From NCBI GenBank assembly GCA_030595925.1, contig JAUVLC010000073.1, forward strand, positions 1-12,357: 12,357 nt of DNA. The letters run 5' to 3'. The translations under genes were made by a program, and so were the position numbers. A model generated the notes under the pieces. It saw only the letters and a program-made list of their open reading frames with translations. It searched no databases and was not told the DNA's origin. The stretch comes from Clostridia bacterium. GTDB taxonomy: Bacteria > CBDUZB01 > JAGLHV01. Within the stretch, counting starts at the first letter, position 1, and each line of letters starts with the position of its first letter. Of the stretch, positions 7,380 through 12,357 are shown in pieces.

Positions 7380-8477
7380 ATGGGTAGTTTACATAATGAA
7401 CTAAATCAAACTCTAAAAACACAGCTGAGAAACAAACTAATAGCTGCAATGAAATTGACCAATTTTATAGATTTTCCCGAAATAGAATTTTCTAAATTTA
7501 TTAAAAATGTGGAAAATGATCCATTATTTAAGAAATTAAAAATAAAAAAACTGATAAGTTATCAACGATTAGTTAAAGCAAGCCTTTCATCTAATTTTTT
7601 GCAATTGAAGGAAGAAATTAGTGTGAATAATAGTAAAGTAGATTTAGAATTATTATTAAAGGGGAAAGAAAAAATAATTAGAATAATCAGGGAATTAGGA
7701 ATAACTAAATTTAAGCAATATTTTTTGTACGGTGATATTAATTTGCCTTTGCAGGAAATATCCCGAAAAACGGGATTAGTAATATCCAGGATTAAAAAAA
7801 TTAACGATTTAATTAATGAAATTTCTATTCATAGCGAATTTCACCATCCGTCATTGATAGGTTCCGGAGAAAAAAAACATTATTTTAAAATAGCATCAAT
7901 TGAAAAAACAGAAGAAAATTCTTTTATTATAGGATACTTTGTACCTAATTATGTTAGAGGAAAATATTTAATAAGTTATGAAAAAATAAAGGAAGCCAAA
8001 AAAAGCAATTTTTTTTCCAGGGAAGAAATTGAAAAAATAGATAAATTGCTTAAAGATTTAAATTTAATTAATATCCGAAAAAAAACAATTCATCAAATAA
8101 TTCAGAGTGCCATAGAAGTTCAGTCTGATTATCTATGTTCGGAAGATATTGAAAACTTAATATCATTTACCCAGAGGAATTTATCCGCGAAATTAAAGAT
8201 AAATCCTGGTTTACTTTGTCGCTTGATTGCTAATAAAAGTATTGTTATGCCGTGGGGAGAAGAAAAACCATTAAAAGATTTTTTTGCTAATAAAAAAAAA
8301 ATTAGGAAGATATTAGTTAAAAAAATTATAAATAATGAAAAAGAGCACTATACAGATGAAGAAATTAAAAATAAGTTAAAGAATAAATTTGCAATTAACA
8401 TTTCCCGTCGCTCAGTAAATGTTTATCGAAGAGAATTAGGAATATACAACGGTGAGAAAAAAAATAAAAAAAAATGA
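7380..8477 (+). CDS. Divergent, shortened RNA polymerase sigma-54 factor
   Basis: This protein of 365 residues (usual sigma-54 is about 430-500) keeps recognisable landmarks in order. The N-terminus (LKTQLRNKLIAAMKL near 10-25, ending in ENDPLF) matches region I, normally TPQLQQAIKLL...ENPLL, which contacts enhancer-binding activators. RKKTIHQIIQSAIEVQSDYL (from 233) matches the conserved R-TL-IVxxQxxF segment. LLCRLIANK...LKDFF (278-302) matches the helix-turn-helix block STVSRvtsNKY...LKyFF. SRRSVNVYRREL near the C-terminus is a variant RpoN box (ARRTVAKYRE), with R343-R344 conserved for -24 GG contact. The acidic region II and part of the core-binding domain are reduced. It would direct RNA polymerase to -24/-12 promoters and needs an AAA+ activator, and one is encoded two genes downstream. 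ATG at 7380 gives region I the normal spacing; TTG at 7368 is possible, and neither has a strong ribosome site. The gene is extremely A-rich. Whether a canonical rpoN exists elsewhere is unknown, so no symbol is given. Confidence 0.8.
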   Translation: MGSLHNELNQTLKTQLRNKLIAAMKLTNFIDFPEIEFSKFIKNVENDPLFKKLKIKKLISYQRLVKASLSSNFLQLKEEISVNNSKVDLELLLKGKEKIIRIIRELGITKFKQYFLYGDINLPLQEISRKTGLVISRIKKINDLINEISIHSEFHHPSLIGSGEKKHYFKIASIEKTEENSFIIGYFVPNYVRGKYLISYEKIKEAKKSNFFSREEIEKIDKLLKDLNLINIRKKTIHQIIQSAIEVQSDYLCSEDIENLISFTQRNLSAKLKINPGLLCRLIANKSIVMPWGEEKPLKDFFANKKKIRKILVKKIINNEKEHYTDEEIKNKLKNKFAINISRRSVNVYRRELGIYNGEKKNKKK

Positions 8478-8528
8478 TTGGCGTTTTTTAAAATTAGATG
8501 ATTTTTGTAAAAAGAGGTAGGGGGCAAA

Positions 8529-10166
8529 ATGGCCAGGGGATGTATATTAGTAGTTGATGATGATTTATCCGTGAGAAATTTATGTGTTGATATTTTGGAA
8601 AACGAGGGATATAAGGTAGATGATGTGGAAAGCGGGGAACAGGCTTTGGAATTTATTAATAGTAATAACTATAATTTGTTGCTTTTAGATATTAATTTGC
8701 CGAATATTAATGGGGTGGAAGTTTTAAAACGGGTAAAGAACAAACATTTTCAATGTGAAGTAATTATGATGACAGCTTACGGCAGTATTAAAACAGCGGT
8801 AGAATCAATGCGGTTAGGGGCATATGATTATATTTCTAAACCATTTGATGTTAAGAAATTTGCTTTATTAATAGGCCATTGTTTGGAAAAACAAAATTTA
8901 GTTACGGAAGTAAGTGAATTAAAAGAAATTGCTGCGTTGTATAATCTAAGTAAGGCAATGAGTTCGACAATGAATCAGGAGGAATTACTTAATTTGATTT
9001 TAAAATCAGCTTGCAAATCTTTACAGGCAGATGGTGGTTCATTAATATTATTAGACCAGGAAAAAAAAGAATTAACAGTCAGGAATTATTTAGCGATGTT
9101 TAACGGTAAAATATTTAAGAAAAAAGTGCGTGTTAATGAGGAAATAGCTGATTTAAAGAATAAGATGAGAGAATCGGGAATAATGACTGGAAGACGGGGT
9201 ATGGTTGAATATTTTAAGTTTGAAGAAGAGTTTGAAAGTGTAAAATCAAGATTGACAGTTCCTTTAATGATAAAAAATGAAGTTATAGGAATAGTCAATT
9301 TAACGAAATTGAAAGAAGATAAAGAATTTGTTGAACAGGACATGAAACTGCTTTCTATTTTTGCTAAAGATGCTGCCCTGGCAATAGAAAATACTCGGAC
9401 TTATCAAGCATTAGAAAATGCAAAGATGAATCTGGAGGAAGATGTAAAAAAAAGAACGGAAGAACTTTTAAAGGCACAGGAACAATTGATTCAATCTGAA
9501 AAAATGTCTGCTTTGGGCCAATTAGCAGCCGGGGTTGCTCATCAGTTACGTAATCCACTGTATGTTATTATGTCTGCAGTTCAGTTTTGCCTTTCTAAAT
9601 TTAACCTTAAGGAAGAGGTTAAGGAAAATCTGGAAGTAATTTTACGAAATATCGAAAATGCTAATAAGGTAGTAAAAGAATTACTTGAATTTGCCCGGCC
9701 ATCAAAAGTTAATTTTCACTCTTTATCCATCACGGAAGTTCTCAATAAAGTCTGTCAATTAATACAACCAAGATGTTCTAATCAGAATGTTCAGGTTGTT
9801 AAGCAGTTTTGTTCTCCTTTGCCGGAATTAAGGATTGACAGGGATCATTTGGAGCAAGCTTTTTTAAATTTTATAATCAATTCACTTCAGGCTATGCCGA
9901 AAGGAGGGGTGCTTACCATTAAAACATATCTTAGTTCCAAAAATAAAGAAGTTATCGTTGAATTTATTGATACAGGTTGCGGAATTTCCGAAAAATGTGC
10001 TAAGGAAATATTTAATCCATTTTTTACTACTAAATCCGATGGGGTAGGTTTAGGTATGTCTGTTGCTCATCAGGTAGTTGTCGGCCAACACAAGGGAAGG
10101 ATTGAAGTAGAAAGTGAGGAAAATAAAGGCACTGTTATAAAAGTATATTTACTTTGTTCTACCTAA
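8529..10166 (+). CDS. Cytoplasmic hybrid histidine kinase: REC-GAF-HisKA-HATPase
   Basis: This 545-residue protein has an N-terminal receiver domain (1-120) with acidic pocket D10-D11, phospho-acceptor D54 in LLDINLP, T82 in MTAYG and K104 in SKPF. A GAF-like sensor domain follows (about 133-290), then a coiled coil (about 295-325). The HisKA H-box SALGQLAAGVAHQLRNPL has H338. The ATPase domain has an N-box (NFIINSLQAM, N447 and N451), G1 DTGCGI (481-486), FNPFFTTK and G2 GVGLGM. There is no membrane segment, so the signal is cytoplasmic or arrives by phosphotransfer to D54. The residue after the catalytic histidine is Q, where most kinases have E or D. The likely partner is the NtrC-type regulator starting 47 bp downstream, giving an NtrB/NtrC-like pair. 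A strong G-rich ribosome site (GAGGTAGGGGG) precedes the ATG, and the gene follows the sigma-54 gene by 51 bp. Confidence 0.9.
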   Translation: MARGCILVVDDDLSVRNLCVDILENEGYKVDDVESGEQALEFINSNNYNLLLLDINLPNINGVEVLKRVKNKHFQCEVIMMTAYGSIKTAVESMRLGAYDYISKPFDVKKFALLIGHCLEKQNLVTEVSELKEIAALYNLSKAMSSTMNQEELLNLILKSACKSLQADGGSLILLDQEKKELTVRNYLAMFNGKIFKKKVRVNEEIADLKNKMRESGIMTGRRGMVEYFKFEEEFESVKSRLTVPLMIKNEVIGIVNLTKLKEDKEFVEQDMKLLSIFAKDAALAIENTRTYQALENAKMNLEEDVKKRTEELLKAQEQLIQSEKMSALGQLAAGVAHQLRNPLYVIMSAVQFCLSKFNLKEEVKENLEVILRNIENANKVVKELLEFARPSKVNFHSLSITEVLNKVCQLIQPRCSNQNVQVVKQFCSPLPELRIDRDHLEQAFLNFIINSLQAMPKGGVLTIKTYLSSKNKEVIVEFIDTGCGISEKCAKEIFNPFFTTKSDGVGLGMSVAHQVVVGQHKGRIEVESEENKGTVIKVYLLCST

Positions 10167-10167
10167 A

Positions 10168-10182
10168 TTTGGCAACGCCAAA
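10168..10182. promoter_or_regulatory. Short palindrome TTTGGC-AAC-GCCAAA between kinase and activator genes
   Basis: Perfect 6-bp arms (10168-10173 and 10177-10182) surround a 3-bp centre, starting 2 bp after the kinase stop codon. There is no following T-run, so it is not a convincing terminator. It may be a short mRNA hairpin that tunes expression of the activator gene, whose ribosome site (AAAAGGAG) follows shortly after, or it may be a protein site. Confidence 0.35.
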
Positions 10183-10213
10183 ATCTAATTAAAACAAAGT
10201 AAAAGGAGACAAA

Positions 10214-11593
10214 ATGAAAACAATATTGATTGTTGATGATGAACCGGATATTCTATGGACGTTATCTAATGTTTTAAAAGAAAAAGGATATTTTCCGATT
10301 ACGGCTCAAAGCGGAAAAGAAGGTTTAAAAAAATTGGAAGAAGAACAGCCTGATTTAGCTGTTTTAGATATAAGATTACCGGATATGAATGGAATAGAAC
10401 TTCTAAAGCAAATGAAAAAAAAAGAACAAGAGTTATCTATAATTATGTTTACTGCTTATGGTGAAATAAATTCAGCGGTGGAAGCAATAAAATTAGGGGC
10501 ATTTGATTATCTTAATAAACCGGTAGCCAATGAAGAATTACTTTTAGTAATCGAAAGAGCGTTCAAGACAAAGAATCTGAATGAGGAGGTAAAATTTCTC
10601 AGGCAGCGTTTACACGAAAAGATAGAAACAAAAGATATTTTGGGAAAAAGCCAGGTAATGAAAAATGTTTTTAGTCAAATAGAACAAGTTAGTCCTACAG
10701 ATTTAACAGTTATTTTGCAGGGAGAAAGTGGAACAGGAAAGGAAGTCGTTGCTCATTTTATTCATCAGGAAAGTTTAAGGAGAAATAATGCTTTTATTAT
10801 TGTAGATTGCAGTACAATACCTGAGACTTTAGTGGAGAGTGAACTCTTTGGTTATGAAAAGGGGGCATTTACCGGAGCAGATAAAAGAAAATTAGGTTAT
10901 TTTGAATTGGCAAATGGGGGAACTATATTTTTAGATGAAATAGGAAATTTGCCTCTGGCTACCCAGGCTAAAATGTTAAGGATTTTAGAAGAGAAAACAT
11001 TAAAACATTTAGGCGGTAAAAAAGCCATTAAAATAAATGTAAGAATTATTGTCGCTACTAATTCCCTTCTGGAAGAAGCAGTAAAAAAAGGTCAGTTTAG
11101 AGAGGATCTTTATCATCGTTTAAACCAATTTACTGTTTTCCTGCCGCCTTTACATAATCGGAAAGAAGATATTATTCCTTTGGCTCAACATTTTCTGAAA
11201 GAAGCCAATAGTGAACTACACAAACAAATAAATTGTTTTTCGCCAGAAGTACTTAAATCATTTGGTCAGTATTCTTGGCCGGGGAATATAAGAGAGATGA
11301 AAAATGTTATAAAAAGGGCTGTTCTTCTTGCGAATGAAACTATTTTTTCCCGGCATTTACCGGGAAGATTTCAGGTATTATTTTCTCAATCAAAGGAGTT
11401 TATTTCCCGGGACAAGGGAATAATTATTTCTGAATCTTTAAATTTAAAACAGGCAATTGGACAATTAGAAAAAAAAGTAATTAAAAAAGTTTTAGAGGAG
11501 GTAGCCGGTAACAAGGTAAAAGCAGCAAAAATTTTAGGTATTGACCGAAAATCTCTTTATAATAAAATGAAAAAATTTGGTTTTAAAATGTAG
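10214..11593 (+). CDS. NtrC-family sigma-54-dependent response regulator (REC-AAA+-Fis HTH)
   Basis: This 459-residue protein has the standard three-domain build. The receiver domain (1-120) carries D8-D9, phospho-acceptor D52 in VLDIRLPD, T80 and K102. The central AAA+ domain (about 140-375) has Walker A GESGTGKE (170-177), the sigma-54-contacting loop GAFTGA (217-222), Walker B GTIFLDEI (236-243), arginine-finger segment REDLYHRL (296-303) and sensor II WPGNIREMKN (355-364). The C-terminal Fis-type helix-turn-helix (about 420-459) ends in LGIDRKSLYNKMKKFGF. On phosphorylation, presumably by the adjacent kinase, it should oligomerise on an enhancer and hydrolyse ATP to open sigma-54 promoters. 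The intact GAFTGA indicates a true sigma-54 activator, matching the sigma-54-like gene in the same cluster. A good ribosome site (AAAAGGAG) lies 5 bp upstream. Its stop codon lies inside the first repeat of the candidate enhancer at 11588. Confidence 0.95.
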   Translation: MKTILIVDDEPDILWTLSNVLKEKGYFPITAQSGKEGLKKLEEEQPDLAVLDIRLPDMNGIELLKQMKKKEQELSIIMFTAYGEINSAVEAIKLGAFDYLNKPVANEELLLVIERAFKTKNLNEEVKFLRQRLHEKIETKDILGKSQVMKNVFSQIEQVSPTDLTVILQGESGTGKEVVAHFIHQESLRRNNAFIIVDCSTIPETLVESELFGYEKGAFTGADKRKLGYFELANGGTIFLDEIGNLPLATQAKMLRILEEKTLKHLGGKKAIKINVRIIVATNSLLEEAVKKGQFREDLYHRLNQFTVFLPPLHNRKEDIIPLAQHFLKEANSELHKQINCFSPEVLKSFGQYSWPGNIREMKNVIKRAVLLANETIFSRHLPGRFQVLFSQSKEFISRDKGIIISESLNLKQAIGQLEKKVIKKVLEEVAGNKVKAAKILGIDRKSLYNKMKKFGFKM

Positions 11594-11764: not shown

Positions 11765-11779
11765 TGGCATAAAAATTGC
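11765..11779 (+). promoter_or_regulatory. Sigma-54 (-24/-12) promoter of the DUF2341 gene
   Basis: TGGCAT (11765-11770), a 5-bp spacer AAAAA, and TTGC (11776-11779) reproduce the TGGCAC-N5-TTGC consensus with one mismatch. The essential GG (11766-11767) and GC (11778-11779) are 10 bp apart as required. Transcription would begin near 11790, giving a leader of about 50 nt before the ATG at 11843, which has a good ribosome site (AAAGGAG at 11831-11837). It sits directly downstream of the NtrC-type activator gene. Confidence 0.8.
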
Positions 11780-11842: not shown

Positions 11843-12357
11843 ATGAGAACAACGGGAATTTATTTTAAGGAACTAATATTTGTAATTATATATATTTTAT
11901 CTTTAGCTGTTCCTGTTCAGGCCGCATGGCTTGATGGATGGCCGGGAAGAAAACCGATTATTGTTACTGGTTCAACTGCAGAAGAGCAGACAAACTATCA
12001 GGTAAAGCTGGAAGTTCCTTATAACTCTGATATGCAAACAGACTTTGATGATATTAGATTTACTTCTGCTGATGGGGAAACACTAATTAATTGCTGGATG
12101 GAAACTTCAGTCCCATCAGTATCTGCTGTATTTTGGGTAAAGGTTCCTTATATTCCAGCCTCGCCAGAGACTACCATGATATTTATGTACTATGGAAAAC
12201 CAGGAGCGACTTCTGGAAGTAGTTTTGATAATACATTCACAAAAGATTATGGAGAGAATGGATTAGTAGGATTATGGCATATGGACGATAGCATTTCACC
12301 AACGATAGATTCTTCAGGGAATGGGAATAATGGAACAGTTGCTGGAGCTACCTGGCT
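11843..12357 (+). CDS. Secreted DUF2341-LamG domain protein (3' end outside window)
   Basis: The frame is open from ATG 11843 to the window end (171 complete codons). A Sec signal peptide is clear: a basic start, a hydrophobic core (about 11-23) and a likely cleavage after VQA27. The mature part starts with AWLDGWPGRKPI. DUF2341 features include DFDDIRFTSADG (67-78), AVFWVKVPYI (95-104) and MYYGKPGATSGS (115-126). LVGLWHMDDS (141-150) followed by DSSGNGNNGT is the usual beginning of a LamG/concanavalin-like domain. Such proteins are exported and often large, with further adhesion or carbohydrate-binding modules after this point, so the visible part is probably only the N-terminus. The ribosome site AAAGGAG lies 5 bp upstream, and a sigma-54 promoter and candidate enhancer precede the gene. 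Its exact role (adhesin, sheath or polysaccharide binding) is not readable. Confidence 0.85.
   Translation, partial: MRTTGIYFKELIFVIIYILSLAVPVQAAWLDGWPGRKPIIVTGSTAEEQTNYQVKLEVPYNSDMQTDFDDIRFTSADGETLINCWMETSVPSVSAVFWVKVPYIPASPETTMIFMYYGKPGATSGSSFDNTFTKDYGENGLVGLWHMDDSISPTIDSSGNGNNGTVAGATW

What the first reader, a model, noticed from the sequence alone, without database searches (positions are those of the whole stretch)
7380..11593. Divergent short sigma-54 encoded together with its own kinase and NtrC-type activator
Seen: a 365-residue protein with sigma-54 region I, helix-turn-helix and a variant RpoN box (SRRSVNVYRR), followed by a REC-GAF-HisKA-HATPase kinase and a GAFTGA-containing activator, all on one strand. 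Known: sigma-54 is usually a single housekeeping-like gene of 430-500 residues, not bundled with one two-component pair. Inferred: this is a dedicated, specialised sigma-54 module, or the lineage's only but reduced sigma-54.
Basis: partly seen in the sequence, partly recalled or inferred. Interest (0 to 1): 0.72.

Follow-up and report, generated by a model that had tools for sequence, protein, structure and literature searches.

The report
Miniature sigma-54 with its own activator
The window encodes a shortened form of the bacterial transcription-start factor sigma-54, next to the kinase and activator that probably switch it on, and it belongs to an apparently undescribed family that takes the place of normal sigma-54 in this genome and across much of the phylum Elusimicrobiota.

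Summary
The 365-aa product is a real sigma-54 relative, followed by a REC-GAF-HisKA-HATPase kinase and a GAFTGA activator on the same strand. It belongs to a distinct family of "mini-sigma-54" proteins (about 350-400 aa). These keep a diverged region I, the extra-long helix, the HTH and the RpoN box. They lack the acidic region II and about half of the core-binding domain, replaced by a basic linker of about 41 aa.

This genome has two such proteins and no canonical rpoN. Of 294 Elusimicrobiota genomes, 112 carry the family (E < 1e-20) and only one, a different genome, matches the canonical region-I model. Outside that phylum the family is rare. Members sit beside an activator and/or kinase in 43 of 49 loci.

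The promoter evidence is strong. TGGC-N7-TTGC, the classical -24/-12 spacing, is about fourfold over other spacings around these genes and lies just upstream of 23 of 62 mini-sigma-54 genes. In this genome such sites precede nifH, a PII gene and the gene after the window's activator (11765-11779).

Best reading: a reduced but working sigma-54 that uses classical -24/-12 promoters and partner AAA+ activators. No expression or biochemical data exist.

The parts
7380..8477 (+). mini-sigma-54 gene (365 aa from ATG 7380; alternative TTG start 7368 gives 369 aa)
   Evidence: Pfam Sigma54_DBD 56.7 bits; Foldseek best hits are sigma-54 in RNAP complexes, E 3e-7
7407..7538 (+). diverged region I (residues 14-57 in the 369-aa numbering), ending in DPLFKKL where canonical sigma-54 has NPLLE
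   Evidence: profile-profile E 3e-5, probability 73%, best of 16 blocks; model residues from 33 on lie on E. coli region I from residue 32 on, but that part of the model has low confidence
7539..7658 (+). short basic linker replacing region II and the N-terminal half of the core-binding domain
   Evidence: family linker median 41 aa, net charge +4, against -13 in the 60 aa after canonical region I; model residue 98 aligns to E. coli residue 207
7659..8012 (+). remaining part of the core-binding domain (one HTH-like unit)
   Evidence: VIA-align model 98-363 on sigma-54 207-472; sequence alone aligns this unit ambiguously to either half of the CBD
8019..8120 (+). extra-long helix (residues 218-251), with the counterpart of E. 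coli R336
   Evidence: model helix 218-251; R or K at that site in 61 of 61 members, R in 58
8172..8240 (+). helix-turn-helix for the -12 element, with the counterpart of R383
   Evidence: R in 61 of 61 members
8403..8432 (+). variant RpoN box SRRSVNVYRR for the -24 element
   Evidence: counterparts of R455 and R456 are R in 58 and 59 of 61 members
8529..10166 (+). REC-GAF-HisKA-HATPase_c sensor kinase
   Evidence: Pfam
10214..11593 (+). NtrC-type activator: REC, AAA+ with GAFTGA, Fis-type HTH
   Evidence: Pfam Sigma54_activat 229.7 bits, HTH_8; sequence
11765..11779 (+). -24/-12 promoter-like site TGGCATAAAAATTGC, 64 bp upstream of the next gene
   Evidence: the identical 15-mer occurs twice on contig C7 next to another activator
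11843..12357 (+). probable target gene: exported DUF2341 protein, cut by the contig end
   Evidence: Pfam DUF2341 58 bits

Best explanation
The protein is a member of a distinct, reduced class of sigma-54 ('mini-sigma-54'). It most likely binds core RNA polymerase through region I, the extra-long helix and the remaining half of the core-binding domain, and reads classical -24/-12 promoters (TGGC-N7-TTGC) with its HTH and RpoN box. It should hold the polymerase in a closed complex until an AAA+ activator remodels region I; in the window the linked activator is phosphorylated by the linked kinase. It does this without the acidic region II that occupies the DNA and RNA channels in canonical sigma-54. 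Shown by computation: homology, missing parts, absence of canonical rpoN, linkage, promoter enrichment and spacing. Inferred: core binding, activator dependence, the phosphorelay and the target gene.
For: Homology: DBD above cut-off, profile E 4e-31, fold matches to sigma-54 in RNAP complexes with Z 12-13. Region I homology E 3e-5. Functional arginines conserved in 61 members (roles of R336, region I, RpoN box and HTH from review PMC7057263). The family separates from 25 canonical sigma-54s on one branch with 100% SH-aLRT. No canonical rpoN in the window's genome or in the nine genomes behind L049-L057. Elusimicrobiota: 112 of 294 genomes carry the family at E < 1e-20, only one matches the canonical AID model, and it is not among the 112. 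Linkage: activator density 0.155 per kb within 2.5 kb against 0.0076 per kb further out. Promoters: TGGC-N7-TTGC 79 times against 9-36 at 14 other spacings, TGGCA-N6-TTGC[AT] 23 against 0-4; upstream of 23 of 62 mini-sigma-54 genes against 0-3 at other spacings. Own genome: sites before nifH, a PII gene, glnA (340 bp away) and the gene after the window's activator.
Against: No expression, binding or transcription data. The mini-sigma-54 of the Aerophobetes genome is not linked to an activator. The region I part of the model has pLDDT below 50. The window's own sigma-54 gene has no TGGC-N7-TTGC site upstream (sequence). Two same-genus genomes have one or two activators but no detected sigma-54 of either kind, although both are fragmented.
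Confidence: 0.85

Rival explanations
1. The protein is a DNA-binding remnant of sigma-54 that no longer acts as a sigma factor, working instead as an ordinary regulator or repressor at old -24/-12 sites.
For: No Pfam AID or CBD match; half of the core-binding domain and region II are gone.
Against: No canonical sigma-54 remains in these genomes to use the sites. Activators of the GAFTGA type are kept and linked. The R336 counterpart, known for the region I interface rather than for DNA reading, is conserved. -24/-12 sites lie in promoter position before nifH, PII and the family's own genes.
Confidence: 0.08
2. The short proteins are specialised paralogues, and a full-length rpoN exists but is missing from the assemblies.
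For: These are metagenome-assembled genomes and incomplete; G000 is 97% complete in 193 contigs.
Against: The same absence in nine independent genomes and in 293 of 294 Elusimicrobiota genomes cannot be assembly gaps. The one exception, G138, has no activator at E < 1e-30.
Confidence: 0.03
3. An artefact: a frameshifted or truncated canonical rpoN.
For: Short length, missing domains.
Against: More than a hundred intact frames of 350-400 aa in independent genomes, a long supported branch, a conserved linker of constant length.
Confidence: 0.01

Closest known systems
Canonical sigma-54 (RpoN; TIGR02395, Pfam PF00309 + PF04963 + PF04552)
   Same: Region I (diverged), extra-long helix, HTH, RpoN box and their key arginines; -24/-12 promoters with the same spacing; partnership with AAA+ activators.
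   Different: About 110-130 aa shorter; no acidic region II; half of the core-binding domain; below every RpoN equivalog cut-off (60 bits against 277); often next to its own activator; up to four copies per genome.
Multiple rpoN paralogues, as in Rhodobacter sphaeroides and Bradyrhizobium (named in PMC12316311, and PMC9977809)
   Same: Several sigma-54 copies with divided tasks are known there.
   Different: As far as those papers describe them they are copies of ordinary RpoN; here the reduced form stands alone in the genome.
Truncated RpoN of Neisseria (PMC12316311)
   Same: Shortened sigma-54.
   Different: [quoted passage not shown] here the DNA-binding domain is the best-kept part and promoters are retained.
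NtrB/NtrC-, AtoS/AtoC- and ZraS/ZraR-type two-component pairs
   Same: Kinase and activator architecture; best NCBIfam similarity is to AtoC and AtoS.
   Different: The kinase carries an N-terminal receiver and GAF domain, and the pair is encoded with a sigma-54.

Membership tests
Canonical RpoN (sigma-54) | Sigma54_DBD (PF04552) with HTH and RpoN box | tested here: met
   56.7 bits against 22.8; R383, R455 and R456 counterparts conserved
Canonical RpoN (sigma-54) | Sigma54_AID (PF00309) match | tested here: not met
   No match in the protein or in the genome
Canonical RpoN (sigma-54) | Region I homologous to the canonical one | tested here: met
   Profile-profile E 3e-5, probability 73%, controls 9% or less; weak with nine sequences alone
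Canonical RpoN (sigma-54) | Full core-binding domain (PF04963) | tested here: not met
   No match; structure maps only from E. coli residue 207 on
Canonical RpoN (sigma-54) | Acidic region II | tested here: not met
   Basic linker, median 41 aa, net charge +4
Canonical RpoN (sigma-54) | TIGR02395 equivalog cut-off | tested here: not met
   60.5 bits against 277
Sigma-54 superfamily (wider sense) | Same fold as sigma-54, including the extra-long helix | tested here: met
   Foldseek E 3e-7 and Z 12.8 at 4.3 A over 189 residues; helix 218-251
Sigma-54 superfamily (wider sense) | -24/-12 promoters with the classical spacing | tested here: met
   Spacing scans; own-genome sites. Computational only
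Sigma-54 superfamily (wider sense) | Dependence on a GAFTGA activator | not testable with these tools
   Only linkage and presence of GAFTGA, GSFTGA or GAFTDA motifs
Sigma-54 superfamily (wider sense) | Binding to core RNA polymerase | not testable with these tools
   Needs biochemistry

The most novel reading that the evidence does not exclude
Mini-sigma-54 is a second class of sigma-54 that has replaced RpoN across lineages so far counted as sigma-54-free. It initiates without the region II plug, each copy is paired with one or few activators, its own gene is often under a -24/-12 promoter, and in one clade a RpoN-box Tyr-to-Val change goes with a shift of the -24 element from TGGCA to TGGCC.
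Probability: 0.5. Interest if true: 0.82.

Novelty: new variant of a known kind. Interest (0 to 1): 0.74.

Why it matters
Region II and the N-terminal half of the core-binding domain plug the DNA and RNA channels in canonical sigma-54 structures (PMC7057263). A natural family that works without them would show which parts of sigma-54 are needed for holding RNA polymerase closed and which are not. It would also correct the map of sigma-54: a 2011 survey lists Elusimicrobium minutum among diderms lacking sigma-54 (PMC3162934), and standard profiles miss this family, so activators in such genomes would look orphaned and their promoters would be overlooked.

Tried and rejected
Viral contigs: no relative found. 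Region I comparison with nine sequences gave only E 0.005 and was kept as inconclusive until the alignment of 61 was available. Strict TGGCAC-N5-TTGC and GGCAC-N5-TTGC patterns showed no enrichment in the Elusimicrobiota loci, because these promoters carry TGGCC or TGGCAT rather than TGGCAC; the spacing scan replaced them. The CBD block aligns ambiguously to either half of the canonical domain by sequence, so 'C-terminal half' rests on the structure alignment and colinearity. Literature searches found no description of a short sigma-54 family in Elusimicrobiota; the library holds open-licence papers only, and the groundwater Elusimicrobia paper of 2020 (PMC7785019) is not held, so a prior mention cannot be excluded. 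Correlation of RpoN-box residue with -24 base is confounded by kinship and G+C content and is reported only as a lead.

Full report
What is in the window. Three + strand genes follow each other with gaps of about 50 bp: 7380-8477 (365 aa), 8529-10166 (REC-GAF-HisKA-HATPase kinase, 545 aa) and 10214-11593 (REC, AAA+ with GAFTGA, Fis-type HTH; 459 aa). The first has Pfam Sigma54_DBD at 56.7 bits but no Sigma54_AID or Sigma54_CBD match, and scores 60 bits against 277 needed for the RpoN equivalog.

The genome. It is 2.6 Mb in 193 contigs, 97% complete. It has no match to Sigma54_AID, none above cut-off to Sigma54_CBD, and exactly two Sigma54_DBD matches: the window protein and a paralogue of 361 aa on contig C129, 41% identical over 343 residues and also short. 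Three true sigma-54 activators exist. So the genome has only reduced sigma-54s.

The family. A scan of GTDB genomes found members in Elusimicrobia MAGs, an Aerophobetes MAG and two MAGs labelled Clostridia; none of the genomes behind those loci has a canonical RpoN above the cut-off. In 294 genomes of the phylum of L050's genome (Elusimicrobiota by record title), 115 hit the family profile at E < 0.001 and 112 at E < 1e-20, with one to four copies, mostly 350-410 aa. Only one of the 294 matches Sigma54_AID, and that genome (G138) shows only a weak family hit. In 386 genomes spread over other bacterial families, clear members occur only in the window's genome, G029, G474 and G638; the remaining matches near 1e-21 look like ordinary sigma-54 matched in its C-terminal part (most with open frames of 426-579 aa). 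The family lies on one side of a branch with 100% SH-aLRT support and length 0.97 against 25 canonical proteins.

Anatomy. Whole-length profile comparison with canonical sigma-54 gives E 4e-31. Region I is diverged but homologous: probability 73%, E 3e-5 over 51 colinear columns, against at most 9% for other canonical blocks. A predicted structure (mean pLDDT 62; poor in residues 1-42) finds sigma-54 in RNAP complexes as its best PDB matches. It places model residues 33 on over E. coli residues 32 on, and 98-363 over 207-472. The roughly 150 residues in between, region II and the first half of the core-binding domain, are replaced by a linker of median 41 aa with net charge +4, while the 60 aa after canonical region I have a median of -13. 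Residues with known roles are kept in 61 members: R336 in 58 (K in the other 3), R383 in 61, R455 in 58, R456 in 59 (numbering from the E. coli alignment; roles of region I, R336, HTH and RpoN box from PMC7057263; the roles of individual HTH and RpoN-box arginines are from general knowledge).

Module. In 49 loci, an activator lies within 2.5 kb in 35, a kinase in 29, either in 43, both in 21. Activator density is 0.155 per kb inside 2.5 kb and 0.0076 outside. The order is collinear in the window, in L049 and in some Elusimicrobiota, and divergent in many Elusimicrobiota. Genomes with the family have few activators, one to five in the twelve counted, close to the number of mini-sigma-54 copies.

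Promoters. Across 636 kb around family members, TGGC-Nx-TTGC occurs 79 times at x = 7, the classical spacing, and 9-36 times at every other x from 1 to 15; TGGCA-N6-TTGC[AT] occurs 23 times against 0-4. Within 200 bp upstream of the family's own genes the x = 7 form is found in 23 of 62 regions, other spacings in 0-3; some of these genes are close relatives, so the number of independent cases is smaller. In the window's genome a site TGGCATAAAAATTGC lies at 11765-11779, 64 bp before the DUF2341 gene that follows the activator; the identical 15-mer precedes two genes next to the activator on contig C7 (these two share about 150 bp of similar upstream sequence and so are one duplication). TGGCAAAGAAGTTGC lies 52 bp before nifH, TGGCAATATAATTGC just before a PII gene, and TGGCAACCAAATTGC 340 bp before a glutamine synthetase gene, on contig C135 that also carries an activator. 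Gene names nifH, PII and glnA here are my reading of the translations and were not run against a family library. One-mismatch TGGCAC-N5-TTGC sites number 62 in the genome against 29 for the reversed pattern.

Mechanism. Shown: homology, missing parts, conserved contact residues, absence of canonical rpoN, linkage, promoter spacing. Inferred: the protein binds core RNAP and -24/-12 DNA, keeps the complex closed through region I and the extra-long helix, and is opened by the linked activator, which receives its phosphate from the linked kinase. The open question is how the closed state is held without the region II plug.

Limits. The genomes are metagenome assemblies. The literature available here is open-licence only. 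No experiment has been done.

Noticed in passing
L039:4773-6008 (-) in G023 and L040:5032-5877 (-) in G040: Proteins with a mini-sigma-54-like N-terminus and an RpoN-box-like stretch fused to a C-terminal GIY-YIG-type domain. G023 also has a canonical rpoN. Function unknown.
   Followed up: partly
L006:5403-6842 (-), contig C135 of the window's genome: Activator next to a nitrogenase-like gene cluster carries GAFTDA instead of GAFTGA. GAFTDA or GSFTDA occurs in 9 activators near mini-sigma-54 genes; GAFTDA is also known in Desulfovibrio (PMC4641369).
   Followed up: partly
RpoN box of family members in L049-L183: Members with Tyr at the 461 position sit near TGGCA sites (17 of 20), members with Val near TGGCC sites (31 of 44). 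Some loci are counted twice; confounded by kinship and G+C content.
   Followed up: partly
G001 and G002, same genus as the window's genome: They have one and two activators but no detected sigma-54 of either kind. Either assembly gaps or a loss.
   Followed up: no
window:183-2450 and window:3516-5774: Two similar large membrane glycosyltransferase-like genes with C-terminal TPR repeats flank a family 2 glycosyltransferase, apparently a duplication.
   Followed up: no
L001:893-1468 (-), beside the paralogue on contig C129: A small gene that looks like a REP-associated transposase lies between the second mini-sigma-54 and a GAF-HisKA kinase.
   Followed up: no
G138:C115:2193-2309: The only Elusimicrobiota genome of 294 with a canonical region I match (465-aa frame) has no activator at E < 1e-30; possibly contamination.
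   Followed up: no
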